This document shows, in pieces, positions 2,268 through 36,229 of a DNA stretch of 47,197 bases; within the stretch, counting starts at the first letter, position 1; each line of letters begins with the position of its first letter. The notes under the pieces were generated by a model. It did not search any database. It was not told the origin of the DNA and was given only the letters and a program-made list of their open reading frames with translations. The stretch is from a virus: the IMG/VR virus record IMGVR_UViG_3300037327_000024, positions 1-47,197 of that record. One strand, written 5' to 3'. The position numbers and the translations under genes are program-made.

Positions 2268-2268
2268 T

Positions 2269-3170: not shown

Positions 3171-3259
3171 GGACTATTTACATCTATTTGTTAAATAGTT
3201 AGTTCTATGCCTTAGGGGGTACTCTTAAGAGGGCTTATAAAGATTATTCTTAATAAGTG

Positions 3260-3288: not shown

Positions 3289-3326
3289 CCTCAACAAGTT
3301 ATTTAATCAGGTTGTTAGGAGAAGTT

Positions 3327-6852: not shown

Positions 6853-7010
6853 GTATTATTAATAAGATAATGTTAGTCTCATTCTTAGGGTTTACAATAC
6901 TTTCAATGTATGAACAAAACCCATATGAGATTATTCCTTGGTTATTCGCTACAGGATATCTTTTATATTCTATAACTTTAGAAAAAGAACTTAAGGAGAA
7001 AAGTAAGTGA
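6849..7010 (+). CDS. small membrane protein (53 aa), two predicted helices
   Basis: ATGA overlap with the previous gene and GTGA overlap with the next. Hydrophobic stretches at residues 7-21 and 28-42 would span the membrane twice, and the tail EKELKEKSK is strongly charged. Such proteins in phages may act on the inner membrane, for example as holin-like or superinfection-exclusion factors, but nothing specific is recognised. Confidence 0.55.
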   Translation: MSIINKIMLVSFLGFTILSMYEQNPYEIIPWLFATGYLLYSITLEKELKEKSK

Positions 7011-7824: not shown

Positions 7825-7963
7825 GATTGATACGTTTAGAGAGTCTGTAGACTACTTAAATGAGGTTCACGGTGGAGATTGGTTTTGGAATGTAGTTTCT
7901 CAGAGGTTTGAGGACTACTTTACAGATAGATCCTTTAAAAGAGAAGAAGTGGAAGAGAAATGA
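7817..7963 (+). CDS. hypothetical protein (48 aa)
   Basis: ATG 7817 is chosen over an earlier in-frame start because GGAGGTGGAGT precedes it. The product (MSKIDTFRESVDYLNEVHGG) is acidic and Trp-containing, with no known motif. It ends in a TGA that overlaps the ATG of the helicase, so translation is probably coupled. Confidence 0.55.
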   Translation: MSKIDTFRESVDYLNEVHGGDWFWNVVSQRFEDYFTDRSFKREEVEEK

Positions 7964-10137
7964 TAGAAGAAATAGACGTTCAACAGGTAGCCATAGATAA
8001 GATTAAAGCTGGAGGTAATTTGTTCCTAACTGGTATGGGAGGCTGTGTTGATGAGAGTACTCAGTACTTTACAAGAGGTGGTTGGAAAGATATAAGCCAG
8101 TGGGAGGGTGAAGAGATACTCTCTTACGATAAAGACACTGGGGTTGCATTCTTTGAAGATCCTCTCGACTATATAAAGAAACCTTGTGAGGAGTTTTACC
8201 ACACCAAATCTAGGGGAGTCGATATGATGTTGTGTGAGGATCATAATATACTCTACTGCCCTACTAATAATTCTAAAGCTAAGTTTATAAAGACTGAGGA
8301 AATGGTAAGAAGGCATAATAGCAGTCAGGATGGTTGGCAAGGTAAGATAAAAACCACCTTTGACTACTCAGGAGGGGGTATCGACTTATCGGAAGGGGAG
8401 CTAAGGTTACAAATAGCGGTAATGGCTGATGGTAGGGTTGTCAAGGAAGGTAAAGACAACTACACTCAGATGAGATTTACTAAAGAAAGAAAATACTTAA
8501 GACTCTTGGAGATGTGTAAAAAGCATACACTTAGATACGAGGACAGAGGTATAAACAATCAAGGACAGTACGAAGTCATAGTGTGGGCTAAGGTTAGGGA
8601 TAAAAAGTACTCTTGGGACTTACTTGATTGTTCAAAAGAACAGATACAGATAATAGTGGATGAGGTAGTTCACTGGGACTCAAGTTTAACTAAAGAGGGA
8701 AATATAAGATTCTCCAGTAAATTTAAGATAGATGCTGAGGTTATCCAATTTTTTATGGCTTCCAGTGGTAAAAATACCAGTATACGAGAGGATAAGAGAA
8801 AAAATAAAGAGTCATGGAGGTCTGATGCAACCTTAAGCGGTAAAGGTTTTAGGTGTATAGCTAATAAAGACCGCAAGTTGAAAATACCTATAGTAGACTC
8901 TGTAGATGGTTTTAAGTACTGCTTCACTACCACTACTGGGGCTTTTGTAGCTAGAAGAGGGGGGTGCATATTTACTACGGGTAATAGTGGTAAGTCTTAC
9001 GTAATAGATCAGATAATGGATCAATCTACCATCAAATGCGCCCCTTATGGGCAAGCAGCTCTTAACATTGGAGGCATGACGTGTCATAAACTCTTTGGAC
9101 TACCCTTCGGGATACCTGTTGACGGTGATCGCGTTCAGATAAGCAAAACTATGAAGAGTGTTCTCGGTAATAACGTAGTTAAGCGGATTGTATTTGATGA
9201 AGTGGGCACTCTTAGGGCAGACTACCTAGACTTAATTAATATTAAGCTACAAATACTTAAATGCAACAATAAACCCTTCGGAGGCCTTCAGGTTGTCATG
9301 GTAGGGGACTTCTTTCAGATAGATCCTGTAGTATCTAGCCATGAACGGAGAATGTTTTATGATGAGTACCGTAGCAGCTTCTGTTTTGACTCAGAGTGCT
9401 GGGATTTTGAGACTATTGAGCTTCACAAGCCCTACAGAAACACTAATGCTAAACAGATCAAGGTACTAGAGAGCATTAGACGTAGAGATAACAACCACAG
9501 GCTCGCTGTAGACATTATTAACAGAGAGGCCATACCTTATGACCATACTAAGAGTGTTCTTCACCTGTGCTGTTATAAGACTGACGCTAAAGTGGTCAAT
9601 AAAGTTTGGTATTCCAAGCTAGAAGCTAAAGAAAACTCTTACAAGTGCTATAATCCTGATAAATGGAAAGAAACACCTGTGGATCTAGTTATTAAACTAA
9701 AAGTAGGTTGCAGAGTGATCATAAAAGCTAACCACAGAGATGGTTTATACGTAAATGGGTCTAAAGGTATGGTTTCTAAGTTATCTATCGCCTCTGTTAC
9801 AGTAAAGCTTGACTCTGGGGAGTCTGTAGAAGTAGAATCTAATCAGTGGGACAAGTATGTGTATAAAACATCTAAGGGTAAGCTAGAAAAAGAGATAGAA
9901 AGCAGCTTCTTTCAGTTGCCTATTGCTTTAGGGTATGCTCAGACTGTTCATGGCGCTCAAGGTGCTACTATGGATGATGTTGCCTTAGACTTTGGGGAAG
10001 GTTGCTTCAGTCATGGTCAAGCTTACGTAGCATTATCAAGGATTAGAGATTTAAAACGAATTTCTTTAGTAAACCCTCTTGAATATAAAGATATTATATG
10101 CGATAGTCGTGTCACTGGGTTTTATTCGGGTTTATAA
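7960..10137 (+). CDS. Pif1/Dda-type SF1 helicase interrupted by an intein
   Basis: Superfamily 1B DNA helicase. Of 725 residues, 314 (29-342) are an intein; the ligated protein would be 411 aa. The intein splits the Walker A P-loop: GMGG before it, SGKS after it. Further helicase motifs follow: Walker B IVFDEVG, the GGLQVVMVGDFFQIDP motif, and the C-terminal AQTVHGAQGATMDDV and YVALSR motifs of Pif1/RecD2/Dda enzymes. It would unwind DNA in replication or recombination, or dislodge proteins. The enzyme cannot bind ATP until the intein is removed. ATGA coupling joins it to the upstream gene. Confidence 0.92.
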   Translation: MIEEIDVQQVAIDKIKAGGNLFLTGMGGCVDESTQYFTRGGWKDISQWEGEEILSYDKDTGVAFFEDPLDYIKKPCEEFYHTKSRGVDMMLCEDHNILYCPTNNSKAKFIKTEEMVRRHNSSQDGWQGKIKTTFDYSGGGIDLSEGELRLQIAVMADGRVVKEGKDNYTQMRFTKERKYLRLLEMCKKHTLRYEDRGINNQGQYEVIVWAKVRDKKYSWDLLDCSKEQIQIIVDEVVHWDSSLTKEGNIRFSSKFKIDAEVIQFFMASSGKNTSIREDKRKNKESWRSDATLSGKGFRCIANKDRKLKIPIVDSVDGFKYCFTTTTGAFVARRGGCIFTTGNSGKSYVIDQIMDQSTIKCAPYGQAALNIGGMTCHKLFGLPFGIPVDGDRVQISKTMKSVLGNNVVKRIVFDEVGTLRADYLDLINIKLQILKCNNKPFGGLQVVMVGDFFQIDPVVSSHERRMFYDEYRSSFCFDSECWDFETIELHKPYRNTNAKQIKVLESIRRRDNNHRLAVDIINREAIPYDHTKSVLHLCCYKTDAKVVNKVWYSKLEAKENSYKCYNPDKWKETPVDLVIKLKVGCRVIIKANHRDGLYVNGSKGMVSKLSIASVTVKLDSGESVEVESNQWDKYVYKTSKGKLEKEIESSFFQLPIALGYAQTVHGAQGATMDDVALDFGEGCFSHGQAYVALSRIRDLKRISLVNPLEYKDIICDSRVTGFYSGL
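8044..8985 (+). mobile_element. LAGLIDADG-type intein in the helicase P-loop
   Basis: Protein-splicing element of 314 residues from Cys (helicase residue 29) to Asn (residue 342), followed by Ser as the +1 residue. The start CVDESTQYFTRGGW is a typical block A and the end has block G with C-terminal Asn, but Gly replaces the usual penultimate His. Inside, LQIAVMADG followed by MRFTKERKYLRLLEM matches the DOD (LAGLIDADG) homing endonuclease found in phage inteins; the second motif (AEVIQFFMASSG) is less conserved. Insertion into a nucleotide-binding loop is a favourite intein site. Endonuclease activity may be reduced. Confidence 0.92.
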
Positions 10138-15286: not shown

Positions 15287-15558
15287 TTTTTATTAGAGAG
15301 GAAATTGTAGATAAAGTATACAACATACCTTATGAAGAGTTTATGTGTAACTATTTCTCAGCAGCTGTGATTGACAGTTATAACCCTAACGTAGTCATCA
15401 TCTACGTACACTCTGGTTTAGGTACAGGTAACATGTCTTACGTATTTGATGTGCCACTAATTAAGGGGTGTGATGTTGATAATGTTGCAGATGTTAAGAA
15501 AATGATTATGTCTTATTTTAGATCAGAGCGTAAGACAAAAGAGGACTTTAAGTTATGA
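15283..15558 (+). CDS. hypothetical protein (91 aa)
   Basis: ATGA coupling at both ends. Mixed alpha/beta, Tyr-rich, ending in a basic helix (SYFRSERKTKEDFKL). No known family. Confidence 0.55.
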   Translation: MIFIREEIVDKVYNIPYEEFMCNYFSAAVIDSYNPNVVIIYVHSGLGTGNMSYVFDVPLIKGCDVDNVADVKKMIMSYFRSERKTKEDFKL

Positions 15559-16055
15559 GTATGCTTTATTCCCAATACAAAGAATACATTATAATACCAG
15601 TTTTAAAACAGATGAGTATTCCTTACTCAGAAGAAGCTGTTGAGTTACTCGCCATGACTATTGCCCACGAATCCCAAGGTGCTAAGTATATTAAACAGTT
15701 GGGAGGTGGCCCCGCCTGTGGGCACTATCAAATGGAACCTGCTACGTATATGGATATATGGGAGAATTACCTAGCCTATAGGAATGACTTACAAATAGAT
15801 TTAGCGGCATGGGGATCTTGTGGGGATGCAGAAGAGATGATAGGCAACCTCTACTACGCTACAGCTATGGCTAGGGTGCATTATTGGAGAGTGAGTGAGG
15901 CACTGCCTGTCTTAGATAGGAGTCAAGTAGAGTTAGAGTATGATTTTCTAGTAGAGCTTGCACATTATGCTAAAGACCACTACAATACACACTTAGGGAA
16001 AGCAACCCCTGAGAAGTACTTATCAGATTATTTGACATGGAGGAATGAAGGATGA
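15555..16055 (+). CDS. lysozyme/transglycosylase-like endolysin candidate
   Basis: The segment AMTIAHESQGAKYIKQLGGG followed by PACGHYQMEPATYMDIW is the hallmark of a phage family related to lytic transglycosylases: the Glu of AHES is the likely catalytic acid and GxYQMEP corresponds to the GLxQ(I/M)xP loop. The second half (YATAMARVHYWRVSEALP and the YNTHLGKATPEKYLSDY stretch) is also typical. It would cleave cell-wall glycan during lysis. No signal peptide is present, so export would need a holin; two small membrane proteins lie upstream at 13298 and 14409. Confidence 0.7.
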   Translation: MSMLYSQYKEYIIIPVLKQMSIPYSEEAVELLAMTIAHESQGAKYIKQLGGGPACGHYQMEPATYMDIWENYLAYRNDLQIDLAAWGSCGDAEEMIGNLYYATAMARVHYWRVSEALPVLDRSQVELEYDFLVELAHYAKDHYNTHLGKATPEKYLSDYLTWRNEG

Positions 16056-19405: not shown

Positions 19406-19430
19406 ACAAAAAAGCCCCATTTAAGGGGCT
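19406..19430 (-). terminator. rho-independent terminator for the minus-strand block
   Basis: On the minus strand AGCCCC-TTAAAT-GGGGCT is followed by TTTTTT, a strong terminator, 20 bases after the stop of the last minus-strand gene (19451). The same hairpin core recurs at 19999-20015. Confidence 0.85.
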
Positions 19431-19450
19431 ACAGGGTCTTAAGGGTCTTT

Positions 19451-19780
19451 TTAGTATGTATTAATACGTGTATTCATAATCTTTACAAAAGCTTTTGATT
19501 TAAACATGTTTTTAAGATTTGTAATGTTCTTAGAATACCTTTTAGCAGATTTAAGATCGCCGTCTAACATCAAAAAGATTTCTAGCTCTATTGTCTGCTT
19601 TAGGGCTTCGATCACTGCATCCCTTAAGTTAATAGTACGTGTATTAATAAAAACACATGGTGAACATATCACGCCATCGCTAGCACTACGTATTGATACT
19701 ATTGCGCGTTGGCCCATTATAGCATTTTCAATAGAAAAGGTAATTTCAGTGTTCAAAGCTTTGATAGTGTAAGTATTCAT
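19451..19780 (-). CDS. hypothetical protein (109 aa) of the foreign-looking block
   Basis: Starts at ATG 19780 after AGGCTAAAAA, the leader style of this block, and ends before a strong terminator; a promoter lies just upstream. N-terminal half beta-like (MNTYTIKALNTEITFSIENA), C-terminal half helical and Lys-rich. No family recognised. Confidence 0.6.
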   Translation of the reverse strand: MNTYTIKALNTEITFSIENAIMGQRAIVSIRSASDGVICSPCVFINTRTINLRDAVIEALKQTIELEIFLMLDGDLKSAKRYSKNITNLKNMFKSKAFVKIMNTRINTY

Positions 19781-19822
19781 TTTTTAGCCTGTTTTTTAGT
19801 TTAATAAATTAATTGAAGTTGA

Positions 19823-19850
19823 ACTATAAAGCATATTCATTAGAGTGCAA
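19823..19850 (-). promoter_or_regulatory. promoter for the 109-aa gene
   Basis: On the minus strand TTGCAC (19845-19850), 16 bp, then TATAGT (19823-19828). It is preceded by TTTAAATAAGC, similar to the AAAAAAGCTTG in front of other promoters of this block (near 20415 and 24391). Confidence 0.55.
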
Positions 19851-19868
19851 GCTTATTTAAAAGAAAAA

Positions 19869-19891
19869 CCAAAAAAGACCCATTTAAGGAT
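19869..19891. terminator. weak hairpin, possible terminator
   Basis: AAAGA/TCTTT with two further C-G pairs around ATTTAA; flanked by A and T runs so it could act on either strand. A variant of the AGCCCC hairpins nearby. Confidence 0.35.
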
Positions 19892-19997
19892 CTTTATTGA
19901 AAAGCTTTTTAGTGCCTTATTTCATCTTGTACCCCCTATGGGCTATTAGTTAAAAGTCTATTCTATGTTACTAAAGGATCTTAAACCTTTCACCTGA

Positions 19998-20015
19998 AAG
20001 CCCCATTTAAGGGGC
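19998..20015 (-). terminator. hairpin terminator behind the 103-aa gene
   Basis: On the minus strand GCCCC-TTAAAT-GGGGC followed by TTTC, 20 bases after the stop at 20035. The core AAGCCCCATTTAAGGGGC is identical to the terminator at 19412-19429. Confidence 0.65.
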
Positions 20016-20034
20016 GCTATAAGAGCTTTTAAGA

Positions 20035-20346
20035 TTAATTAAGTTCTGTATGGTAGATATCAACTACACAATGTTTTTTACCGTTAGAGCCGATCACGTC
20101 CTCACTAATGATACTATTCCAGAGATCATCTGATAAAAGAGGCCTTGCAGCTGATAACCATTCTGAACAATCTTGAATAACTTTTTTAGCCTTTTCTACA
20201 TTTCTTTGATGTTGAGTTCCTGTAAAGTCTTCAAACTTCCATATATAATCATTGGCTTCAAGATCACGCGCAATACGTAAGTGTATCATATTCCGCACTT
20301 GTTTAATGCTAGCATTCATAAATTGTGTATCTAAGATATATTTCAT
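20035..20346 (-). CDS. hypothetical protein (103 aa)
   Basis: Start ATG 20346 (MKYILDTQFMNASIKQVRNM). Largely helical with Trp, ends in a short beta segment. Has its own terminator and a weak promoter (TTGCAA at 20409-20414, TAGTGT 17 bp on). No known family. Confidence 0.6.
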   Translation of the reverse strand: MKYILDTQFMNASIKQVRNMIHLRIARDLEANDYIWKFEDFTGTQHQRNVEKAKKVIQDCSEWLSAARPLLSDDLWNSIISEDVIGSNGKKHCVVDIYHTELN

Positions 20347-20395
20347 AATTTTTATCCAGTAGTTTTTTTTTATAAGTGAACACGAACACTACAGA

Positions 20396-20575
20396 TCATT
20401 TAATAGGCTTGCAAGCTTTTTTAAAAAAAGTTAATCCAGCCCTAAAACAGTTTTGTACTTTAAACGCTGTCTTATGAGTGTTTAAAACTATAAGAGCTTT
20501 TTTAACACCTTGATCGTTATTATCAAAGTTTAATATTAAAAGAGTGTTGTTGAAATTGTCAGTTATGATCCACAT
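20396..20575 (-). CDS. hypothetical protein (59 aa)
   Basis: Frame from ATG 20575 (MWIITDNFNNTLLILNFDNN) to TGA 20396 with AAGGTGAATAAAC before the start. Ends with a basic tail (FFKKACKPIK). Its 3' end overlaps the TTGCAAGC promoter element of the next gene. Composition fits the block. Unknown function. Confidence 0.5.
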   Translation of the reverse strand: MWIITDNFNNTLLILNFDNNDQGVKKALIVLNTHKTAFKVQNCFRAGLTFFKKACKPIK

Positions 20576-20646
20576 GTTTATTCACCTTGTAAGTGCCTGT
20601 TAAGCGCCTTGTATAGCATCCTAACAGACTTTTATTAATGATTTGA

Positions 20647-20847
20647 TTAACTACGTAACGATACACAAAAAAGTTCTTCGGGGCCGTTTAATGTCTTACC
20701 ATCTATCCAAGTAAGTCCAATGGTGTGATTATTAGATAAACAAACTATTAAGTATTGGCCCTTACTATCTTTTATGACTTTATAATTTTCTGAGAAAGTT
20801 ACAACTTGCCCATTATTAATCGCTTGTTTTATTTCTTTAACATTCAT
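20647..20847 (-). CDS. small conserved phage/plasmid-type protein (66 aa)
   Basis: The pattern NVKEIKQAINNGQVV followed by YKVIKDSKGQYLIVC, NNHTIGL and DGKTLNG fits a widespread family of small proteins on gammaproteobacterial phages and plasmids, of unknown function. The leader AAACGAAATATAGGCTGAAATATT before ATG is almost the same as that of the gene at 21172. Confidence 0.6.
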   Translation of the reverse strand: MNVKEIKQAINNGQVVTFSENYKVIKDSKGQYLIVCLSNNHTIGLTWIDGKTLNGPEELFCVSLRS

Positions 20848-20878
20848 AATATTTCAGCCTATATTTCGTTTAAAAGGT

Positions 20879-21172
20879 TTAGTTTAAGATCGGAACACTT
20901 TCACCGCACTGTATAAAGTACGCTTGTTGCCAAAACCCTAACCACATTTCAAAGTTACCAGATCTATATTCTTTTATTTTAGCTATATTCTGAAGCCTAT
21001 AATCTTCAAAATCATTCACAAAAACATCACCGCTTTGAGCTTCACGAATACAACCAATAGCATTTTTAACATACCAGTTAACAGTTTTCTTAATAGTCTT
21101 CTTAGTTATTAGAACACTTTGATCATGAACTCTGATACTTTGCTCTTTAATTTGATTGTTTAATAATTTCAT
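20879..21172 (-). CDS. hypothetical protein (97 aa)
   Basis: Starts behind ATATAGGCTAAAATA, a leader shared with 20847. Basic N-terminal half (MKLLNNQIKEQSIRVHDQSV), then EDYRLQNIAKIKEYRSGNFE and a Trp/Phe-rich end (MWLGFWQQAYFIQCGESVP). This ending recurs in small plasmid and phage proteins, but no function is known to me. Confidence 0.55.
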   Translation of the reverse strand: MKLLNNQIKEQSIRVHDQSVLITKKTIKKTVNWYVKNAIGCIREAQSGDVFVNDFEDYRLQNIAKIKEYRSGNFEMWLGFWQQAYFIQCGESVPILN

Positions 21173-21181
21173 TATTTTAGC

Positions 21182-21373
21182 CTATATCTCGTTTAAGTTG
21201 ATTTCTTTACTAGTTGTTTGAACTTGGTTTAAAGTACACTTGAAGCCTTTATTTGTAGGAAAGGACTTTTTAAGGGTATCCACAAAAGTTAAAAGATTTG
21301 ATTGATTTTGATCGCTTATTCTGTTTATTTCACAAAAGAATTGACCTTTTAAACTTACATTAACTCTATACAT
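21182..21373 (-). CDS. hypothetical protein (63 aa)
   Basis: ATG 21373 after AAAGGCGTAAAATA. Beta start (MYRVNVSLKGQFFCEINRIS), helical middle. Unknown; coupled to the neighbour at 21373. Confidence 0.5.
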   Translation of the reverse strand: MYRVNVSLKGQFFCEINRISDQNQSNLLTFVDTLKKSFPTNKGFKCTLNQVQTTSKEINLNEI

Positions 21374-21612
21374 TATTTTACGCCTTTAAAAAGGTTAATA
21401 GCTTGAAAGAACTTTTTAGATGTAGATTTACTTGATCCTTGCCAGTGTATAACATGTAAAAGACCACCTTTTGAGACCCTAACAAAGCGGCATTTTTTAG
21501 GGTTTTGATCTCCGCATTTTAACCACTGGCCCGCATGAATTTTAATCTGGCCCTGAGATATGGCGTTAGCTATATTGTGATCCCATATGTTTAGAGTTGG
21601 TAAGTCTTTCAT
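21373..21612 (-). CDS. hypothetical protein (79 aa)
   Basis: ATG 21612 overlaps the stop of the upstream gene (TAATG) and follows GGAGATA. Rich in Trp and Cys (IHAGQWLKCGDQNPKKCRFV, VIHWQGSSKSTSKKF). The pattern may form a small basic nucleic-acid-binding fold. Not recognised. Confidence 0.55.
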   Translation of the reverse strand: MKDLPTLNIWDHNIANAISQGQIKIHAGQWLKCGDQNPKKCRFVRVSKGGLLHVIHWQGSSKSTSKKFFQAINLFKGVK

Positions 21613-21800
21613 TATCTCCACCAGTTTTTTAATGTAGTCTCAGATACGTTATTAGGGTTATCCATAGTATCTAAATGTTTTATAATTTTAGGATCTTTTA
21701 TATACTTGTAACCATAAAACTTAGATCTTAAGAGTACTATACAATACTTAGAATTACCGATTTTTATAGCTAAATCTGTAGAAGTTTGAATATATAACAT
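21612..21800 (-). CDS. hypothetical protein (62 aa)
   Basis: ATG 21800 (MLYIQTSTDLAIKIGNSKYC) to TAA 21612. Beta-like start, acidic middle, Trp-Trp-Arg end. Translation couples to the gene at 21612. Confidence 0.5.
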   Translation of the reverse strand: MLYIQTSTDLAIKIGNSKYCIVLLRSKFYGYKYIKDPKIIKHLDTMDNPNNVSETTLKNWWR

Positions 21801-21865
21801 TTTTTATCACTCTCAGTTAATTTAATGATAGACCCTAATTAAAAAGGATCTACGGTTAAACAAAC

Positions 21866-21970
21866 TTAGTCATTCAGTGCTAAGTGTCTATCTTTACGCA
21901 TAGATCTCAAGATCTTGATTTGCTTGCGTTGGCTTTTTGTTGGTTTATTTTTTGCGCTGTAGTATTTCAT
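21866..21970 (-). CDS. 34-aa basic protein
   Basis: ATG 21970 behind AGGGGATCATC. MKYYSAKNKPTKSQRKQIKI is very basic; the whole product has a high Lys/Arg content like small nucleic-acid-binding peptides. Short, so moderate confidence. Confidence 0.45.
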   Translation of the reverse strand: MKYYSAKNKPTKSQRKQIKILRSMRKDRHLALND

Positions 21971-21979
21971 GATGATCCC

Positions 21980-22522
21980 CTAGTTAGTTCTGAAAATATT
22001 ATAATGATTGCTTTGGTATGCTTCGCCATCATAAGATCCGAAGTGATGCCCTAAACCGTCAACCTTGCAATTCTCCACGGTTTGATCCCAGTCAATAACA
22101 AAAAAACTTGGCAGCTCGTCAGGTAGCTCATAACAATCTTTTATCTGTCCTCTAAGGCTATCAGACCATATTTGATCTATCTCGTCGTTATGTATTAGGC
22201 GAACTTCACCACAAAGCAGATCCATACAAAACTCACTAGACGTTAGAAAATTTTGTTTAATATTGTTTAAATGTTCGAAAAACTCATAAAATTCTAGCTC
22301 TGAAAAATCACAATCGACAGCTTCAAGACATACAGTTAATATTTCTAAACATCTAGTATTATCAGAGTCATTATCTTTTACTAGCAAGCTCTCCCAGTCA
22401 TCTAGATAATTATCATTAATAGTAGTGATCGCGCTCTTCATTTCTTCAAGTGAGTAGTTGGTAAAATCTGCATTACCTTGAAGATCATTAAAAAAGTTTA
22501 AAAGTGAAGTTGAGTTTTTCAT
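21980..22522 (-). CDS. hypothetical acidic protein (180 aa)
   Basis: ATG 22522 after AAAGGCTAGACTA. Strongly acidic, helical first two thirds with several Cys (DNDSDNTRCLEILTVCLEAV), Asp/His-rich end (DWDQTVENCKVDGLGHHFGS). The ending resembles short antirestriction-type or DUF1281-like acidic tails only superficially. DNA mimicry is possible from the charge; no assignment made. Confidence 0.55.
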   Translation of the reverse strand: MKNSTSLLNFFNDLQGNADFTNYSLEEMKSAITTINDNYLDDWESLLVKDNDSDNTRCLEILTVCLEAVDCDFSELEFYEFFEHLNNIKQNFLTSSEFCMDLLCGEVRLIHNDEIDQIWSDSLRGQIKDCYELPDELPSFFVIDWDQTVENCKVDGLGHHFGSYDGEAYQSNHYNIFRTN

Positions 22523-22526
22523 TAGT

Positions 22527-23294
22527 CTAGCCTTTGATAGTTGTTAAGTTAAATTTATTTGTAAGTTCTTGAAGACGAACCTTATTTAATAATGTTTGAG
22601 ATGTCAATATTTTTGTAAGTTTATTTTTGTAATCGGCATCAAGTAACAGTTCTTTTATAATGCTTTGATCAATACCCGTGTGATTTGAATACTTTTGGAT
22701 ACCCCATATTTCAGATCGTGCCTTTGCTTTTGATATTTTCTTTTCATATATATGATACTCAGATTTTATATCTTTAAGCCTTGATAAAGCTGTAAATATA
22801 CTCTTATGTATGAAAGTGTTTAAACTGTACTTTCTAATTAACATATTTATAAAAGCTCTATCATTAGAATTTTCCTTCTCAATATGCATTAATAATTCAC
22901 CCCAATATTTTACATCCTTACGCTTTAAGGGCTTAAAAGTAATCAAGTAATTTTCTAGTTGTTGATCTTGGAGGGCTTTAAAACTTTCCTTTGATAGGGT
23001 TAGATTAAATATATCATTTCTCAGTTGTTCAAAATAATACAAATTATTAGGGATAAAATGCATACCATAGCCGTTAGGATCATAAAGGTGAAAGTTAACA
23101 AGCTCTGAAAATTCAGGATCTATCAACTTAATAGCGGCTTTTTGATCTTTCCAATCTACGTTTTCGCCATTAAAGCGCACTTGCTCAATGCTAACGCTTA
23201 AATAAGGTAAATCATTACTAGATAATTTGCTCCAATAAACACTCAAAAGGATTTTAGATTTACTTTTGATATCTGAGAATTTTAGTTTAGTCAT
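22527..23294 (-). CDS. hypothetical protein (255 aa), largest of the block
   Basis: ATG 23294 (MTKLKFSDIKSKSKILLSVY), weak ribosome-binding site GAGTAAAA. The first 100 residues are beta-rich, the rest helical and basic with a Lys-rich region. No catalytic motif. A perfect 16-bp palindrome lies 23 bases upstream, which suggests autoregulation or repression. It could be the regulator or replication-like protein of the block; that is inference. Confidence 0.6.
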   Translation of the reverse strand: MTKLKFSDIKSKSKILLSVYWSKLSSNDLPYLSVSIEQVRFNGENVDWKDQKAAIKLIDPEFSELVNFHLYDPNGYGMHFIPNNLYYFEQLRNDIFNLTLSKESFKALQDQQLENYLITFKPLKRKDVKYWGELLMHIEKENSNDRAFINMLIRKYSLNTFIHKSIFTALSRLKDIKSEYHIYEKKISKAKARSEIWGIQKYSNHTGIDQSIIKELLLDADYKNKLTKILTSQTLLNKVRLQELTNKFNLTTIKG

Positions 23295-23316
23295 AAAAAT
23301 TTTACTCTTTTTGGTC

Positions 23317-23332
23317 TAGACATAATTGTCTA
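23317..23332. promoter_or_regulatory. 16-bp palindrome, probable operator
   Basis: TAGACATAATTGTCTA is a perfect palindrome between the 255-aa gene (start 23294) and a TTGACA hexamer on the minus strand (23366-23371, with TACCTT 16 bp downstream). Its place between promoter and start codon fits a repressor site. Confidence 0.55.
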
Positions 23333-23375
23333 AAGGAACTTACAAGGTACGATATAAAATAACGTTGTCAACAAT

Positions 23376-23651
23376 TTATTTAAAATAATTATTCTTGATA
23401 CTTACAAGCTTATTATTTTCAATAGTTACAATTAAACATCCTACATACACTCGATGATCTTGATTGTCTAAAAAATGATCATCTAAAGAAACATTTAAGA
23501 TACTGTTTAAATGTTTGTTTATAGTGCTATGGCTCATGCCTGAAGCCTTTAAGCCGCTAACCACTTGATCAAGGCTTGCTAACGTTTCAGACTTTTTATA
23601 CCTACTATTGATCTTATCAATTTCAGCTTTTACAAAGTATTTTTTAAACAT
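23376..23651 (-). CDS. hypothetical protein (91 aa)
   Basis: ATG 23651 follows the stop of the upstream gene directly (TAGATG). Basic N-terminal helix region, then VVSGLKASGMSHSTINKHLN, which has the look of a short HTH, then beta-like end. Possible DNA-binding protein. Confidence 0.5.
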   Translation of the reverse strand: MFKKYFVKAEIDKINSRYKKSETLASLDQVVSGLKASGMSHSTINKHLNSILNVSLDDHFLDNQDHRVYVGCLIVTIENNKLVSIKNNYFK

Positions 23652-24065
23652 CTAGTAATAAACCCTTTTAGGGTTAGCGGCATAATACATGCCACGCTGT
23701 AGGCTGTTCCACTTATCTTGTGAGAGTTTAAGATCGTGGAGTTCTTCGGTTGTTCTTAAGTTATTAACTAACCTTGAAGCGTGGGTTTTTCTATACGTAG
23801 TGTAAAATTCACCCTCGTACCAATAGCCGTAGACTATTGTTTTTCTCTCGTAGACCCCTTTTAATTCATTAAAGATAGCATTAAAAAAAGGCTGGTATTG
23901 TTTGTTATAACGGTTTCTACCCGTTGGGGTCTTCTCTTCAAGAACTGAAGAAACAAACAATTGATACCCAATAAATACATCACCTATAGGTAATTCTGAT
24001 AGTTCGTAACAATCGTGAATAATTTCATGTAATTCTGTAGTTAGATCTGTAATTGATTTTTTCAT
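23652..24065 (-). CDS. hypothetical protein (137 aa)
   Basis: ATG 24065 overlaps the stop of 24065-24289. Helical start (MKKSITDLTTELHEIIHDCY), then an aromatic, basic C-terminal half (VYGYWYEGEFYTTYRKTHAS). No family recognised. Its reading frame contains a partial sigma-54-like TGGCATN5ATGC on the same strand, judged chance. Confidence 0.55.
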   Translation of the reverse strand: MKKSITDLTTELHEIIHDCYELSELPIGDVFIGYQLFVSSVLEEKTPTGRNRYNKQYQPFFNAIFNELKGVYERKTIVYGYWYEGEFYTTYRKTHASRLVNNLRTTEELHDLKLSQDKWNSLQRGMYYAANPKRVYY

Positions 24066-24289
24066 TATAAAGCCCCTTCAATGTATGATTTAAATTTACT
24101 AACAGAATTTTCCATAGTATTGCTATGATCCACCCCATCAACTGCAAAGCGTTGAAGCCAAGTATTAAAGCCCTTTATGATAACTTTTTTACCTTCTACA
24201 TTACCTACAAAAAGATACCAATCATTTTTATTTTCAAGGCGCTTTTTGTTTATAAGGGCTATAAAGCCTTTTTTTGTATGATTGCTCAT
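24065..24289 (-). CDS. hypothetical protein (74 aa), first of the block
   Basis: ATG 24289 (MSNHTKKGFIALINKKRLEN). Basic, with Trp-rich centre and a helix at the end. The upstream region is AT-rich and lacks a strong Shine-Dalgarno. It heads the minus-strand block. Confidence 0.5.
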   Translation of the reverse strand: MSNHTKKGFIALINKKRLENKNDWYLFVGNVEGKKVIIKGFNTWLQRFAVDGVDHSNTMENSVSKFKSYIEGAL

Positions 24290-24398
24290 ATGTAATCCGT
24301 TTTCGTTTGTTTCTAAGGAGGTGCAAACAATACGCGGATCGTTATTAATAACAAGTGTTTTGTAAAATTATTTTTATTTAATTTATTTTTAAAAAAGC

Positions 24399-24427
24399 TT
24401 GTAATCGGTTTTCTTTTTTGTTATCTT
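24399..24427 (+). promoter_or_regulatory. sigma-70-type promoter upstream of the hairpin RNA region
   Basis: TTGTAA (24399-24404), 17 bp, TATCTT (24422-24427), preceded by TTTTTAAAAAAGC. The AAAAAAGCTTG lead-in matches the minus-strand promoter region near 20415. Confidence 0.45.
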
Positions 24428-24506
24428 ATTAATGCAGGAACGAAAAGCCGACAGGCTTTAAGATACTGGAGTTCAAAACACGGGACGATCCCGATCATAA
24501 AAAAGT

Positions 24507-24523
24507 TGGCACAAAAATTGCTA
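24507..24523 (+). promoter_or_regulatory. sigma-54-type promoter match 3 (perfect)
   Basis: TGGCAC-AAAAA-TTGCTA has every consensus base and correct -24/-12 spacing. A rho-independent terminator lies about 105 bases downstream with no gene between them, so the likely product is a small RNA. Confidence 0.65.
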
Positions 24524-24532
24524 TAGCAAACG

Positions 24533-24640
24533 CCATGCCAATCTGTCATAACTAAATCGTATATCTTATACCTAGATCGCCTTAAAAATCTCATTTATTA
24601 TATTTATTATTCTCCAAGAAAGATCCGTCTTGGGATTTTT
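24533..24640 (+). ncRNA. candidate sigma-54-dependent small RNA
   Basis: Predicted from a perfect -24/-12 promoter (start expected about 12 bases after the GC of the -12 element) and a terminator ending in TTTTT at 24640. The body is AT-rich with only a 6-codon frame (MPICHN), so it is probably not coding. Similarity to known RNAs cannot be judged here. Confidence 0.45.
24613..24640 (+). terminator. rho-independent terminator
   Basis: CCAAGA (24614-24619) and TCTTGG (24628-24633) form a perfect stem with an eight-base loop, then GATTTTT. Points right and closes the candidate small RNA. Confidence 0.8.
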
Positions 24641-24790
24641 CTGCTTAAAGTTTTCTGTATAGAAATTACAATATATATTTCAAATGAAATCACTATTTAG
24701 ATCTAAAATGAAAAGTCTATCGAGATACAGTTTTGGATGAAAATGCTCTTTGTATAAAAATCTAAGGAGGTTTAGTGGAGAAGGTGTAGG

Positions 24791-24819
24791 AGAGCTTACC
24801 TGTAGGGTAGATAAGCTCT
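24791..24819. other. long perfect hairpin
   Basis: AGAGCTTA (24791-24798) and TAAGCTCT (24812-24819) pair over eight bases around 13. No T run follows on either strand, so it is not a standard terminator. It lies 52 bases past the end of the minus-strand gene set at 24871. Confidence 0.5.
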
Positions 24820-24870: not shown

Positions 24871-25071
24871 TCATGATTGTATATTCTTAAGTTCTTTATG
24901 TGGACAATCCTCTTCATGTGTATATTGCTCACCACAGAATACGCAGTTATACTCATCCCATTCGTCTACATATGTTTGAGGCACTTTCTTTAGTAAGTCT
25001 TCAAGGTAGGCTATTCGCTTGTCTCTGGCCTCTAAAAGCACTTCATACTCTTCTGAGCTTACAGTCATCAT
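24871..25071 (-). CDS. small CxxC protein (66 aa)
   Basis: ATG 25071 overlaps the stop of the upstream gene (ATGA) and follows GGAG. Helical start (MMTVSSEEYEVLLEARDKRI), then CVFCGEQYTHEEDCPHKELK, where C-x2-C and C-x-H look like a zinc-binding knuckle. The end EDCPHKELK is repeated in the gene at 25283. Unknown function. Confidence 0.6.
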   Translation of the reverse strand: MMTVSSEEYEVLLEARDKRIAYLEDLLKKVPQTYVDEWDEYNCVFCGEQYTHEEDCPHKELKNIQS

Positions 25072-25286
25072 AGCTGCCACTCCCACTCTAAGGAGCAATC
25101 AAACTCTTTAGCGCACTTCTTAAAGCGTTTTAAAGACAACCCCTCTAGACCTATCACACCCTCCCCGTTATAAAATAATACTAACATTCCATCTACCCAT
25201 CCTACAGAGTTAAAGCCTACAGTCATACCCTCATGAGTAAGTGAGTAAACTGATTTATCTAGCATCTTATTTTTTTCTAATTTCAT
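25068..25286 (-). CDS. hypothetical protein (72 aa)
   Basis: ATG 25286 behind AAGGAGATACAATT. Beta-rich centre (MTVGFNSVGWVDGMLVLFYN), helical end. Overlaps neighbours on both sides by 4 bases. No family recognised. Confidence 0.6.
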   Translation of the reverse strand: MKLEKNKMLDKSVYSLTHEGMTVGFNSVGWVDGMLVLFYNGEGVIGLEGLSLKRFKKCAKEFDCSLEWEWQL

Positions 25287-25525
25287 AATTGTATCTCCTT
25301 AAGTTCTTTATGTGGACAGTCCTCTGGGTGTTCATCTGCCTCTATATCAATATTATTCATTAATCTTGACTCCGCTCCATCACCTGTAAGACTTCGGCTA
25401 TGGTGTATGGTAGTACCGTTATGTTGTGCGTATCCGTAGTAATATCCATTTTGCATATCTTCAGGGACTTCTACAAACAAATGGAAACCTCGATACTTAG
25501 TGTAAGAATACAATTCATTATTCAC
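25283..25525 (-). CDS. hypothetical protein (80 aa)
   Basis: GTG 25525; the ATG close by is out of frame. Tyr- and His-rich, ending PEDCPHKELKEIQL like the gene at 24871. The shared end continues at DNA level for about 35 bases, pointing to a local duplication. Confidence 0.55.
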   Translation of the reverse strand: MNNELYSYTKYRGFHLFVEVPEDMQNGYYYGYAQHNGTTIHHSRSLTGDGAESRLMNNIDIEADEHPEDCPHKELKEIQL

Positions 25526-26364: not shown

Positions 26365-26421
26365 GTCTTATTAAGAGTAATCTTAAATAATGTTACATTA
26401 CAAGTATTTGCTAAATAGGGG

Positions 26422-26450
26422 TTGACAGGTTTTTAGATCAACGTTATACT
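26422..26450 (+). promoter_or_regulatory. rightward sigma-70-type promoter in the repeat
   Basis: TTGACA (26422-26427), 17 bp, TATACT (26445-26450). Same promoter as the leftward one at 3142-3170. It would feed the 26.7-47 kb operon with a long leader containing CTCTTAAG-type motifs. Confidence 0.85.
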
Positions 26451-26534
26451 GATCCTAAGGAAACCCCTTAAGAGTATTCTTAAAGAGTATATCTTAAGAG
26501 TTACTATTAAGAGTATCCTTTAGATATACTACTA
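26422..26534. repeat. 113-bp perfect inverted repeat, right copy
   Basis: Exact reverse complement of 3058-3170, beginning with the TTGACA of a rightward promoter. Confidence 0.97.
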
Positions 26535-32084: not shown

Positions 32085-33688
32085 AGTCAATAACAAATTT
32101 CCGTAAAGCAACTATAGCGGATGTGGAGGCTAATGGTTTAGACAATGCCACAAAGATACATATTCTATCTTGCACTATGGATGGCAACAAAAAGCACAAC
32201 ACTAGGGGTTCAAACCACGAGAAGCTAAGGCAGTTTCTTAATTACCACATTAAGAATAAGATACCCGTTGTTATGCACAATGGTATTTGCTATGACGTAC
32301 CTCTCTTAAGTAGGTTGTTAGACATTGACCTGTCAGAGTTAATGGTTATAGATAGCCTAGCCCTTAGTTGGTATTTAAACACTGACAGAAAGGTGCATGG
32401 CTTAGATAGCTTCTATGATGACTATGGTATCAAGAAGGTTGCTGTAGAGCAGGAGGACTGGGATTTTCAGAGTGAGTGCCCCGAAGAGTTAGAGGCACAC
32501 TATGAGCGCATGAGAGTACGCTGTGTAGTAGACGTAAAGATAAACAAGAGCCTCTGGGAAGACCTCTTAGAGCGTTTAACTAATATGTATACTATCGTCA
32601 AGGAATCTGTAGATAATGGCTTGGTGGAAGGTACAAGGATGTCTGAGGATGAGGTCTGCTACATAGATCAGTACAAACAATCTTCTAGTGTAGATGACTA
32701 CATAGAGAGAATACTAACCTTTCTTATGTTTAAGATGGACTGCGCTAGACTACAAGAGAAAACTAAGTTTAAGTTAGATATACCTAAACTAGAGAAGCTA
32801 GAAGATAAATTAGAGGGACTGATACTGATAGCTAAGACAGAGTTGGAAGCAGCCCTACCTAAAGTGCCTAAGTATGCTGTCAGGAACTTCCCTAAAAAAC
32901 CTTTTAAGACTGATAGGACTTACTCTGTTTCTGGCCTTACATGGAATGCTCTAGTAGATAAGCTGGACACTGTAGATGAGTATGGCTTTGCTAAGGCTAT
33001 TATAGTGGATGATAAGTCTATCAAGGAGCTGATAGGCCATGACAGCCCTAAGATATCTTCTCCAGCTCAGATAAAGGATTGGTTATTCAGTCATGGATGG
33101 AAGCCTAAGACATTTAAGTTTGTTAAAGATAAGAAAGCTCAACAGATCTGGGTGGACAGTGGCTTTAGGAAAGAGCTTAAGCCTAAGCCTAGAGCTGTAC
33201 CTCAGATCAATCAAGAGAAAGACACAGGTAAAGAGCTTTGTGACAGCGTTGTAGAGCTTGCTAGTAGAATACCTGAGATCATGGCTTACTCTAAGTACAC
33301 TCTTATTAAGCATCGTTATGACATTGTTAAAGGGTTTAGAAGGGATATGTCTCCCGATGGCTATGTTAAGGCCCGTATAGGTGGATTTACTAACACCCTA
33401 AGAGTTAAGCATAGACAGTTAGTTAACCTGCCAGCTATTAATAAAGAGTACGGAGAGGACATAAGAGGGCTGCTTATAGCTGGCGAGAGTAGAACCTTGC
33501 TAGGTAGTGACTTAAGTGGTCTAGAAGATAGGACTAAACACCACTTTATGTTGCCACATGATCCAGAGTATGTACAAACTATGATGTCTCCAGATTATGA
33601 TGCTCACCTAGATATTTGTGTAACTAATGGAACAGTAACTGAAGAGGAGGTTAGATTTTACAAATGGTACAAGACGCAAAGCAAATGA
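32081..33688 (+). CDS. DNA polymerase family A, N-terminal part (exonuclease to motif A)
   Basis: First piece of a T7-like replicative polymerase, 535 aa. Exo I is DVEANGLD (D14, E16), then the exo II-like HNGICYDVPLL and a C-terminal exo III region RCVVDVKIN. Palm motif A is SDLSGLEDR with D477. The chain ends shortly after EEEVRFYKWYK, before the O-helix. The missing motifs B and C are in the gene at 34142. Start ATG 32081 chosen for GGGAGGT; an upstream in-frame start at 32069 is less likely. The two pieces would have to associate to make an active enzyme. Confidence 0.92.
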   Translation: MKSITNFRKATIADVEANGLDNATKIHILSCTMDGNKKHNTRGSNHEKLRQFLNYHIKNKIPVVMHNGICYDVPLLSRLLDIDLSELMVIDSLALSWYLNTDRKVHGLDSFYDDYGIKKVAVEQEDWDFQSECPEELEAHYERMRVRCVVDVKINKSLWEDLLERLTNMYTIVKESVDNGLVEGTRMSEDEVCYIDQYKQSSSVDDYIERILTFLMFKMDCARLQEKTKFKLDIPKLEKLEDKLEGLILIAKTELEAALPKVPKYAVRNFPKKPFKTDRTYSVSGLTWNALVDKLDTVDEYGFAKAIIVDDKSIKELIGHDSPKISSPAQIKDWLFSHGWKPKTFKFVKDKKAQQIWVDSGFRKELKPKPRAVPQINQEKDTGKELCDSVVELASRIPEIMAYSKYTLIKHRYDIVKGFRRDMSPDGYVKARIGGFTNTLRVKHRQLVNLPAINKEYGEDIRGLLIAGESRTLLGSDLSGLEDRTKHHFMLPHDPEYVQTMMSPDYDAHLDICVTNGTVTEEEVRFYKWYKTQSK

Positions 33689-34158
33689 GCTTAGAGGATC
33701 TTTATGAGGAATGTCATAAGAGGTTTAAGTATGTGAATGGGGTACTTTACTTTAAGGGAAATACACACAGTAAGAATAGGAGAGGGGAATCTCCCTCAAG
33801 TGTGAATAATTGTGGCTATTTATTCGTCACAGTTAACTATAAGAGTTACCTAGTTCACCGACTTATATACCTTATGGAACATAAGACTCTCCCAGAGCTA
33901 CTTGACCACATAGACAGGAATAAACAAAACAACAAGGTCGGCAATTTAAGAGCTGCAAATAGGGAGGTGAACTCTTGGAATAGAGATAAACAACAGAATA
34001 ACTCCTCAGGGTATAGGGGAGTTAGTTGGGGGAAGCAGAATAAGAAATGGCACAGCTATATCACAATTAAAGGTAAGAGAGTCAACTTAGGATATTTTAG
34101 GTGTGTCCATGAAGCAGGTAGAGTCGCAGAGGAGGCTAAAAGTGAAATTAAGTTTTGA
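33685..34158 (+). CDS. HNH homing endonuclease with AP2 domain, inserted in the polymerase gene
   Basis: HNH_3 motif: LVHRLIYLMEHKTLPELLDH followed by IDRNKQNNKVGNLR, with the His-Asn-His-type core. The C-terminal AP2 domain is SGYRGVSWGKQNKKWHSYIT then KRVNLGYF. ATG 33685 overlaps the polymerase stop (ATGA); a start at 33664 with distant GAGGAGG is possible. It lies exactly where the polymerase is broken, so it probably targets the intact polymerase gene of related phages between motifs A and B. Confidence 0.9.
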   Translation: MSLEDLYEECHKRFKYVNGVLYFKGNTHSKNRRGESPSSVNNCGYLFVTVNYKSYLVHRLIYLMEHKTLPELLDHIDRNKQNNKVGNLRAANREVNSWNRDKQQNNSSGYRGVSWGKQNKKWHSYITIKGKRVNLGYFRCVHEAGRVAEEAKSEIKF

Positions 34159-34735
34159 AGAGATGAAGGGCTTAAACCCTAAAGACCAGATGGAAATAAT
34201 AGAGAGACTTTCAGGTTTAAGATCACAAGGAAAGTCCACCAACTACAGTTCAGTGTATAACATAGGGGCTGATGCACTTTCAAGAGATTTAGACGTTGCT
34301 GTGAGAGTTGCTAAGGCACTCCTAGAGGGGTATTGGCAGTTAAACTGGAGTGTAAAGACTATAGCAGAGGAGCAGTTTGTCTTCCAAGATGACTACGGCA
34401 ATAACTGGTTAGTAAATCCTATCAATGGGTTCTGTTATTCTCTAAGAAAAGACTCGGATAGGTTCAGTACATTATGTCAGGGTACAGGATCATTCTTTTT
34501 CGATATGTGGGTTGACATCATATTGACGGAAATGTACACTCTTTGGGGTCGGAAGTCATTAAGTGCATCTTTTCATGACGAAATAGTATTAGCATTTAAA
34601 GATAGCCCTAAGTTAAGAAAGATATTTAGTGAATTAGTTTTAAAAGCTATTGACACAGTAAACAAGAAGTATATACTTAGGAGAGATTTAGGGGCTGATG
34701 TTCAGTTTGGCAACAGTTACGCAGAGATACACTAG
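34142..34735 (+). CDS. DNA polymerase family A, C-terminal part (motifs B and C)
   Basis: Second piece of the split polymerase, 197 aa. GTG 34142 is preceded by GGAGG with six bases spacing, inside the end of the HNH gene. The O-helix motif B is KSTNYSSVYNIGADALS (K31) and motif C is ASFHDEIV (H145-D146-E147). Together with 32081-33688 it gives all catalytic motifs in order, with nothing essential visibly lost. A separate ribosome-binding site shows it can be translated on its own; intron splicing is not needed to explain it. Confidence 0.9.
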   Translation: MKLSFEEMKGLNPKDQMEIIERLSGLRSQGKSTNYSSVYNIGADALSRDLDVAVRVAKALLEGYWQLNWSVKTIAEEQFVFQDDYGNNWLVNPINGFCYSLRKDSDRFSTLCQGTGSFFFDMWVDIILTEMYTLWGRKSLSASFHDEIVLAFKDSPKLRKIFSELVLKAIDTVNKKYILRRDLGADVQFGNSYAEIH

Positions 34736-34746: not shown

Positions 34747-35313
34747 ATGAGAAAGTTATTTATAGACCAAAAAGGCCTTTGTCGTTCGGATAGAACCAAA
34801 ATCGCCAATACTTTACGTAAGTTAGGGGCTAATTGGTATAACGGCACTACCCATAGCCTACACCTAGGCAAGAATTTTATATACTTAATAGGTGATGAGC
34901 TTACTTGGTCATCAACTAGAGTGGCTGAATTAGAAAGTTATACAGAAGTAACCTTAAAAGAACTATTGGAGATGACGATGCAAGAGGATCAGATAAAACT
35001 AACTAACTTTGTAACTATTACACTAACTTACGGAGAGCTTTTAAGAGCTGGAGTTGTAGGTGCAAGAACTAATGGCAACAGACGAGGAAAAAGCGTATAC
35101 CAAATAGCTCTAGATACTTTTGGAAGGGATATTATAGACCCTTGTGTCGCTAAATATTGCGCTAATAGTCAAGATTACTCAAGTTCTCAGTTAGAGTGTG
35201 AAGCTATAGCTTTCTCTCCTAAGCTGTCTGAAAAAGAAATTCAAATGAATGCTTTACAACAGAAAATTACTGAGCTACAATCAACTTACGATAACTTAAA
35301 GGACACTTTATAA
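34747..35313 (+). CDS. hypothetical protein (188 aa)
   Basis: ATG 34747 behind GGGGGAGAATGT. N-terminal part (MRKLFIDQKGLCRSDRTKIA) looks like a small alpha/beta domain; the middle helix-rich; the end is a coiled coil (LQQKITELQSTYDNLKD). No family recognised. Confidence 0.6.
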   Translation: MRKLFIDQKGLCRSDRTKIANTLRKLGANWYNGTTHSLHLGKNFIYLIGDELTWSSTRVAELESYTEVTLKELLEMTMQEDQIKLTNFVTITLTYGELLRAGVVGARTNGNRRGKSVYQIALDTFGRDIIDPCVAKYCANSQDYSSSQLECEAIAFSPKLSEKEIQMNALQQKITELQSTYDNLKDTL

Positions 35314-35765
35314 TGAGAGTTAAGCAACCTGAGACAGCTATACGTCAGTTAGAGGCTCTAATAGTTACTGCCACTAATGCAAAACTATCAGAGAGCATTT
35401 TAGATATGACTGCATGGAAAACAATACATGAATGTGGTTACGCAGCCTGCCTGATTGGATACCAAAGTTTGTCAAAGAACTTAAAAGAGTTCCCTTGCGC
35501 GGATGCTAGTGATTATACCACTACTAGGGATATGTGCGAGACTATAACTGATGACTTAGATGCGTCTTTAGGGTATGCCTTGTCAAGGTCTATATGGGAA
35601 GGGGGAGACAGAGAAGGTTATGCTGAGTGTTCAGGTATGTTTAGTATAGAGGAGATCAGCACATTTTCACACCTACGAAAAGGCAGCACTAGCTTTGACT
35701 CTGCTATATACTATATGTCGGCTATTATAGCTAAAATTAAAACTCAAAAAGGGGGTAGAATCTAA
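35313..35765 (+). CDS. hypothetical protein (150 aa), paralogue of the next gene
   Basis: Shares about one third of its residues by eye with the protein at 35765, with the common core W-x-TIH-x-CG-x-AACL-x-GYQ-x-LS. Such Cys/His motifs occur in a widespread phage hypothetical family. TAATG overlap upstream. Tandem duplication; function unknown. Confidence 0.65.
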   Translation: MRVKQPETAIRQLEALIVTATNAKLSESILDMTAWKTIHECGYAACLIGYQSLSKNLKEFPCADASDYTTTRDMCETITDDLDASLGYALSRSIWEGGDREGYAECSGMFSIEEISTFSHLRKGSTSFDSAIYYMSAIIAKIKTQKGGRI

Positions 35766-36229
35766 TGGCATTACGTGATAATATTAAGTCTGTAGAAATG
35801 TTAGAAGCTTTGATATTAACAGCTACAGAAGCTAAAGAACAAGAAAAAAATCTAAATATGGGCAGATGGGTTACTATCCATACCTGTGGAAAGGCAGCTT
35901 GTCTAGTTGGGTATCAGGCGTTATCAAAAAGGTTAAGTCTTTTTGCTCATGCTACTATGACCTCTAATGGGCCAAGAGGAAATGATGTGCATGAGATATC
36001 TTCAGAATTGGCTACAGATGTGGAGGACTGTTTAGGTTACGAATTGGCAAACTCTATCTATGAAGCGAACGATAGAAGAGAGTTTGCAGAAAATTCTGAG
36101 TTATTTTCTGCAAAAGAGCTTGACTCCTTTGATCACTTAGGGGAAGATACAAACTTGGAAGCAGCTATAGACTACATGCAAGCTATAGTTGTTAAGATTA
36201 AAAACAACGAACAAGGAGAAGCAATATGA
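35765..36229 (+). CDS. hypothetical protein (154 aa), paralogue of the previous gene
   Basis: Core GRWVTIHTCGKAACLVGYQA matches the neighbour. Starts one base into the stop of that gene. Acidic C-terminal half. Likely arose by tandem duplication and then diverged. Confidence 0.65.
   Translation: MALRDNIKSVEMLEALILTATEAKEQEKNLNMGRWVTIHTCGKAACLVGYQALSKRLSLFAHATMTSNGPRGNDVHEISSELATDVEDCLGYELANSIYEANDRREFAENSELFSAKELDSFDHLGEDTNLEAAIDYMQAIVVKIKNNEQGEAI

What the first reader, a model, noticed from the sequence alone, without database searches (positions are those of the whole stretch)
19406..24400. Foreign-looking 5-kb block of 13 unknown genes with its own expression signals
All genes lie on the minus strand; their start sites use leaders such as AGGCTAAAA instead of the GGAGG sites of the phage core; promoters carry AAAAAAGCTTG rather than TTGACA-N17-AATAMT; gene ends use AGCCCC/GGGGCT terminators seen nowhere else in the window. 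Gene spacing is looser too. At least one protein (20647) belongs to a type common on gammaproteobacterial plasmids and phages. The block may be an acquired plasmid-like cargo, a satellite remnant or a defence/counter-defence island.
Basis: partly seen in the sequence, partly recalled or inferred. Interest (0 to 1): 0.8.

Follow-up and report, generated by a model that had tools for sequence, protein, structure and literature searches.

The report
Phage early host-takeover gene array
The 5-kb block is most likely the fast-changing early ("host takeover") gene region of an aquatic tailed phage; it looks foreign beside the core genes, but it occupies a set place in this kind of phage and is not an inserted plasmid, although its unusual excess of GATC sites is unexplained.

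Summary
In detail: 19.4-24.8 kb is AT-rich (31% vs 39% GC), lacks canonical Shine-Dalgarno leaders (1/14 vs 42/63 genes), is all minus-strand and has no Pfam, PADLOC or named PHROG match. The interpretation (plasmid-like cargo, satellite or defence island) is not supported. A 94-98% sister contig carries the block at the same place, but there it is ~82% identical with whole genes swapped. A more distant relative has a mostly different gene set at the same spot with the same GC drop, leader style, terminator and GATC excess. Relatives with a 40-43% identical primase keep the same layout: a minus-strand small-ORF block diverging from the replication operon. Block genes recur in small-gene arrays of unrelated phages of marine bacteria (at least five families within one 10-kb stretch of Vibrio phage RYC). 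One gene of the distant relative's block has its homologue in the experimentally early-transcribed region of phage PAK_P3. Best reading: an early host-takeover array, a known kind of region, fed by a shared gene pool. The GATC excess has no tested explanation.

The parts
19406..24800 (-). whole block: AT-rich, GATC-rich minus-strand small-gene array, including upstream noncoding DNA to about 24.8 kb
   Evidence: GC 0.31; GATC O/E 1.86 vs 0.90; GATC positions; ORFs
24065..24289 (-). 74-aa ORF, first gene of the array, 95% aa identical in sister L004
23652..24065 (-). 137-aa ORF; matches phrog_7352/29101; 34% identical over 91 aa to a Colwellia phage 9A protein; absent from sister L004, which has a different gene here
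23376..23651 (-). 91-aa ORF, 96% aa identical in L004
22527..23294 (-). 255-aa basic ORF (pI 9.5); 65% aa identical in L004, 25% to a Vibrio phage RYC array protein; structure model unusable (pLDDT 38)
21980..22522 (-). 180-aa acidic ORF (pI 4.1); homologues in Vibrio phage RYC (41-45%) and Erythrobacter phage vB_EliS-L02
21866..21970 (-). 34-aa basic mini-ORF with motif K-P-(S/T)-K-S-(E/Q)-R-K-Q-I-K-x-L-R; conserved in L004 and L024 and in part in Shewanella phage 1/40
21612..21800 (-). 62-aa ORF, 48% aa identical in L004; no match in the phage collection
21373..21612 (-). 79-aa basic ORF (pI 10.3); relatives in Roseobacter phage CRP-738, Alishewanella phage Slicko01 and Shewanella-infecting phages
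21182..21373 (-). 63-aa ORF; phrog_18878; relative in the Slicko01 array
20879..21172 (-). 97-aa ORF; phrog_19367 (E 3e-35); 47-51% identical to Pseudoalteromonas phage PH357 and Shewanella phage 1/40 proteins; leader ATATAGGCTAAAATA
20647..20847 (-). 66-aa ORF of a type found on roseobacter conjugative plasmids and a few large Vibrio replicons; leader ATATAGGCTGAAATATT
20396..20575 (-). 59-aa ORF, no relative found
20035..20346 (-). 103-aa ORF, no relative found
19451..19780 (-). 109-aa ORF, last gene; leader AACAGGCTAAAAA
24327..24354 (-). putative array promoter TTGTTA-N16-TATTGT, sequence retained in sister L004
   Evidence: read; consensus reading only
23344..23371 (-). putative promoter TTGACA-N16-TACCTT (L004: TTGACA-N16-TATCTT)
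   Evidence: read
20386..20414 (-). putative promoter TTGCAA-N17-TAGTGT behind an A-tract
   Evidence: read
19823..19850 (-). putative promoter TTGCAC-N16-TATAGT
   Evidence: read
19998..20018 (-). terminator-like hairpin GCCCC-TTAAATG-GGGC
   Evidence: read; not listed by the terminator scan
19874..19895 (-). terminator-like hairpin with loop TTAAAT, T-rich tail
19413..19430 (-). terminator-like hairpin AGCCCC-TTAAAT-GGGGCT-TTTTT closing the array; same stem in L024

Best explanation
The block is the early, host-takeover gene array of a lytic tailed phage whose replication genes resemble those of Pseudomonas Otagovirus phages and whose layout matches Rheinheimera Barbavirus. It is a minus-strand run of small genes, probably read by unmodified host sigma70 RNA polymerase soon after DNA entry, diverging from the replication operon and running towards the left operon, with which it converges. 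Its small basic and acidic proteins probably bind host proteins or DNA to redirect or block host functions. The genes are drawn from a pool shared with larger, unrelated phages of marine bacteria and are swapped fast, which explains the odd composition, weak-SD leaders and orphan look. Shown here: position, divergence, gene swapping, shared gene pool, and one homologue (of a relative's block) inside an experimentally early region. Inferred: early timing in this phage, sigma70 use, and the takeover function.
For: Layout: small-ORF minus block, then divergent replication operon, in window, L004, L024, Barba22A and about a dozen relatives with 40-43% identical primase. Turnover: block 82% vs core mostly 94-98% nt identity, with 23652-24065 replaced and an extra 147-aa gene in L004. 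L024 has a mostly different gene set with the same GC drop, GATC excess, AGCCCC terminator and leader style. Shared pool: five gene families of the three blocks in one 10-kb stretch of Vibrio phage RYC and none in a 30-kb RYC control stretch; others in Slicko01, PH357, Shewanella 1/40 and Colwellia 9A. In Slicko01 many of the array genes have their own copy of a TTGACT...TATACT promoter leader. Timing anchor: the L024 block gene 2875-3402 is homologous to PAK_P3 gp100 (32%, E 7e-27), and gp74-gp112 of PAK_P3 are early by RNA-Seq, all hypothetical proteins (PMC4933390).
Against: No transcript data exist for this phage. The timing anchor is a gene of the distant relative's block, not of the window's own. 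The relatives with 40-43% identical primase share layout with the window but no detectable block genes. The Barba18A transcriptome resolved no separate host-takeover class (PMC9305737). Promoter-like and terminator-like sites in 18-29 kb are no more numerous than in shuffled sequence. Otagovirus PN09, closest by primase in the phage collection, has only three short reverse genes before its primase operon.
Confidence: 0.8

Rival explanations
1. An acquired plasmid-like cargo, inserted once as a block from a bacterial plasmid.
For: Different GC, leaders and GATC usage; the 20647 protein has relatives on roseobacter plasmids and large Vibrio replicons.
Against: No replication, mobilisation or toxin-antitoxin family; all other relatives found, apart from a short match of 20879 to two Bacillus plasmid records, are in phages; no bacterial genome carrier with two probes; the sister and the distant relative both have a block in this place.
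Confidence: 0.06
2. A remnant of a phage satellite lodged in the phage genome.
For: Compact block of small genes with its own signals.
Against: No integrase, primase, capsid or packaging interference gene detected; gene content turns over at a fixed locus, unlike a single integrated remnant.
Confidence: 0.03
3. A dedicated counter-defence island: most of the proteins inhibit restriction, CRISPR or abortive systems. This is a special case of the early array in function.
For: Early arrays of many phages hold anti-restriction genes (general knowledge); 21980 is very acidic (pI 4.1), as are most L024 block proteins, which would suit DNA mimics; fast gene swapping suggests an arms race.
Against: No PADLOC hit better than E 0.016 (that library holds defence systems, not inhibitors); no Pfam hit; PDB searches with the 21980 family and model gave nothing meaningful.
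Confidence: 0.2
4. The odd composition reflects recent import from donor phages with GATC-rich genomes, not function. (This concerns the origin of the composition and is compatible with the early-array reading.)
For: Shared gene pool with large phages of marine bacteria.
Against: Those phages' arrays have GATC O/E 0.8-1.2, not 1.9, while window and L024 blocks have the excess with mostly different genes.
Confidence: 0.35

Closest known systems
Early region (gp74-gp112) of Pseudomonas phage PAK_P3 (Nankokuvirus)
   Same: Array of small ORFan genes; one homologue (gp100) to a gene of the related L024 block
   Different: PAK_P3 early genes lie downstream of the RNR genes on the same strand and near the genome terminus; in its close relative PAK_P5 this region has GC about 54% and no GATC excess
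Divergent small-gene region (22.4-31.6 kb) of Rheinheimera Barbavirus phages
   Same: Same layout: replication operon on one side, small genes on the opposite strand, convergent operon beyond; two L024 block genes have homologues there; GATC is higher there than in the rest
   Different: No homologue of the window's own block genes was detected; pentapeptide-repeat genes are present; early timing not resolved in its transcriptome
Small-gene arrays of Vibrio phage RYC, Alishewanella phage Slicko01, Pseudoalteromonas phage PH357 and Shewanella phage 1/40
   Same: Same gene families side by side; one-strand runs of small genes; near-identical per-gene promoter leaders in Slicko01
   Different: Much larger genomes (136-158 kb); GATC O/E only about 0.8-1.05

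Membership tests
Phage early host-takeover array | Run of small genes of unknown function on one strand | tested here: met
   14 ORFs of 34-255 aa, no Pfam function among the ten scanned
Phage early host-takeover array | Fixed place next to the replication operon, with fast gene turnover | tested here: met
Phage early host-takeover array | Genes homologous to experimentally early genes | tested here: inconclusive
   met for L024's block (PAK_P3 gp100); no window block gene hit the PAK_P3 stretch
Phage early host-takeover array | Host sigma70 promoters inside the array | tested here: inconclusive
   candidate sites read from sequence, two of them retained in L004; site count equals shuffles
Phage early host-takeover array | Transcribed in the first minutes of infection | not testable with these tools
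   needs infection RNA-Seq
Plasmid-like cargo | Replication, mobilisation or maintenance genes | tested here: not met
   no such family among the ten proteins scanned against Pfam and PHROGs
Plasmid-like cargo | Block or several of its genes present on plasmids or chromosomes | tested here: not met
   no listed plasmid record held several block genes; 20647-type relatives on most of 111 plasmid records plus a short 20879 match on two Bacillus records; 22527 none; genome scans with two families found no relative
Phage satellite | Integrase, replication or packaging-hijack genes | tested here: not met
Defence or counter-defence island | Members of known defence or anti-defence families | tested here: not met
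   PADLOC and Pfam; no anti-defence library was available
ArdA-type anti-restriction DNA mimic (21980) | ArdA sequence or fold | tested here: not met
   Pfam and PDB sequence searches found no ArdA; model pLDDT 60, Foldseek best E 1.1, so the fold part is weak evidence

The most novel reading that the evidence does not exclude
GATC (Dam) sites are kept on purpose in the early arrays of this phage group, while the rest of the genome is neutral or depleted, so that GATC methylation state or GATC-binding host proteins (SeqA, MutH, Dam) mark the early region, for example switching it off after replication or steering its exchange between phages.
Probability: 0.1. Interest if true: 0.65.

Novelty: new member of a known kind. 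Interest (0 to 1): 0.4.

Why it matters
Early arrays are where phages keep small proteins that disarm hosts, and they are mostly unannotated. This one shows that unrelated phages of marine bacteria draw on one shared early-gene pool, and that position plus composition can mark such arrays in raw contigs when homology fails. The GATC excess in the window and L024 blocks, which have mostly different genes, and the milder rise in 13 further phages, is a simple, testable signal whose cause is unknown.

Tried and rejected
ArdA-like anti-restriction for 21980 (resemblance of its C-terminus recalled from memory): no ArdA by Pfam, PDB sequence search or Foldseek on a low-confidence model. Structure of 22527: pLDDT 38, not searched further. 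Leader motif ATATAGGCTRAAATA scanned in viral contigs: at least 119 stretches, probably mostly chance; not used. Bacterial carriers through genome scans with families A1 and A2: none. Left-flank core protein 15555-16055 as a probe for sister phages: none. GATC excess in Pseudomonas PAK_P5 and Ab03 early regions: absent. AAAAAAGCTTG as a distinct promoter class: not above chance in the window. Papers linking GATC avoidance to phage early genes: none relevant by title and abstract; not read.

Full report
Observation. The window is a 47-kb phage contig from IMG/VR. Between 24289 and 19451 lie 13 minus-strand ORFs plus a 34-aa ORF. GC is 0.314 against 0.387 for the rest. Of 14 leaders, one has a canonical SD core, against 42 of 63 core leaders (p = 8e-6). 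The AGCCCC/GGGGCT hairpin occurs only at the block's end. The promoter statement is weaker: AAGCTTGNA is not above chance, the sites can be read as sigma70-like with an A-tract, and promoter-like and terminator-like sites in the region are at shuffle level. The block is therefore a real compositional and translational unit, and its border lies near 24.8 kb.

GATC. Among 4-mers, GATC is the most enriched in the window block and the corresponding block of L024 taken together: O/E 1.86 and 2.06, flanks 0.90 and 0.66. With proteins and codon usage held fixed by shuffling synonymous codons, 35 sites are seen where 23.0 +/- 2.8 are expected (L024: 50 vs 28.3 +/- 3.4; window core: 60 vs 61.9), with the window and L024 counts above the null mean in all three frames. 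There is no clear longer motif. Eleven sites lie in the 1129 noncoding bases. In 12 relatives by primase and in Barba22A, the small-gene block always has a higher GATC O/E than the rest (13 of 13, Wilcoxon p = 2e-4; the loci are not fully independent), but there it mostly rises from about 0.6 to about 0.9; only the window, L004 and L024 exceed 1.6. GATC was picked after looking at the window, so the independent support is L024, whose genes are mostly different, and these relatives.

Relatives. Sister L004 (19.7-kb contig) is mostly 94-98% identical in the replication operon and about 82% in the block; one gene is replaced, one added, and 22527 is 65% identical in protein. Two core genes next to each other (35313-36229) are also divergent (79-85%), so fast change is not confined to the block. 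L024 (16.6-kb contig) has a 76% identical primase segment and, at the same place, a run of minus-strand small genes of which the 34-aa ORF matches the window at E<0.001 and the 116-aa gene matches L004. It has the same closing terminator, A-rich weak-SD leaders and candidate sigma70-like promoters. In relatives with 40-43% identical primase, a minus-strand run of small ORFs diverges from the primase operon; Barba22A has the same layout. The block is thus the occupant of a fixed locus, not a one-off insert.

Gene pool. Block genes have relatives in Vibrio phage RYC, Alishewanella Slicko01, Pseudoalteromonas PH357, Shewanella 1/40, Colwellia 9A and Roseobacter CRP-738. Five families from the three blocks lie within 10.4 kb of RYC, and none in 30 kb of RYC around its terminase and capsid genes. 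In Slicko01 many array genes carry near-identical promoter leaders one by one. Plasmid hits are to the 20647 type, mainly on roseobacter plasmids, and to 20879 on two Bacillus plasmid records.

Timing. PAK_P3 gp74-gp112 form the early transcribed region, all hypothetical proteins (PMC4933390). L024's 2875-3402 protein is 32% identical to PAK_P3 gp100 at 58063-58578. The Barba18A study could not resolve a host-takeover class (PMC9305737). Early timing in the window's own phage is inferred.

Function. No Pfam, PADLOC or named PHROG family was found for the proteins scanned; structure models were poor (pLDDT 60 and 38) and Foldseek gave nothing. The mixture of very basic and very acidic small proteins fits binders of host proteins or nucleic acid, but this is inference. 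Counter-defence is a plausible role for some members and was not shown for any.

Verdict. The GATC excess is the part that deserves follow-up; import from a GATC-rich donor is the simplest explanation, yet the array phages sampled here do not show it.

Noticed in passing
window 7960-10137: PIF1-like helicase whose Walker A region appears split by an intein-like insert (GMGGC...TGNSGKS).
   Followed up: partly
window 33607-34331: DNA polymerase gene interrupted by an HNH-endonuclease-bearing insert; in sister L004 the gene is one 714-aa ORF.
   Followed up: partly
window 3058-3180 and 26412-26534: A 123-bp promoter-bearing segment is duplicated in inverted orientation (97.6% identity) at the heads of the two plus-strand operons.
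   Followed up: partly
window 1-169: Four perfect copies of a 42-bp unit at the contig end; could be an assembly artefact or a real repeat.
   Followed up: no
window 21866-21970: 34-aa basic mini-protein conserved in L004 and L024 blocks, with a similar motif in Shewanella phage 1/40 (L007 10461-10637).
   Followed up: partly
window 2194-2494: Three tRNA genes (Met, Thr, Gly) on the minus strand.
   Followed up: no
window 7007-7579: Putative N6-adenine DNA methyltransferase (Pfam PF10237 match, E 6.5e-4, below the curated cut-off); specificity unknown, of interest given the GATC excess.
   Followed up: no
window 24871-24913 and 25283-25325: A 43-bp direct repeat (91% identity) at the ends of two neighbouring minus-strand genes.
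   Followed up: no
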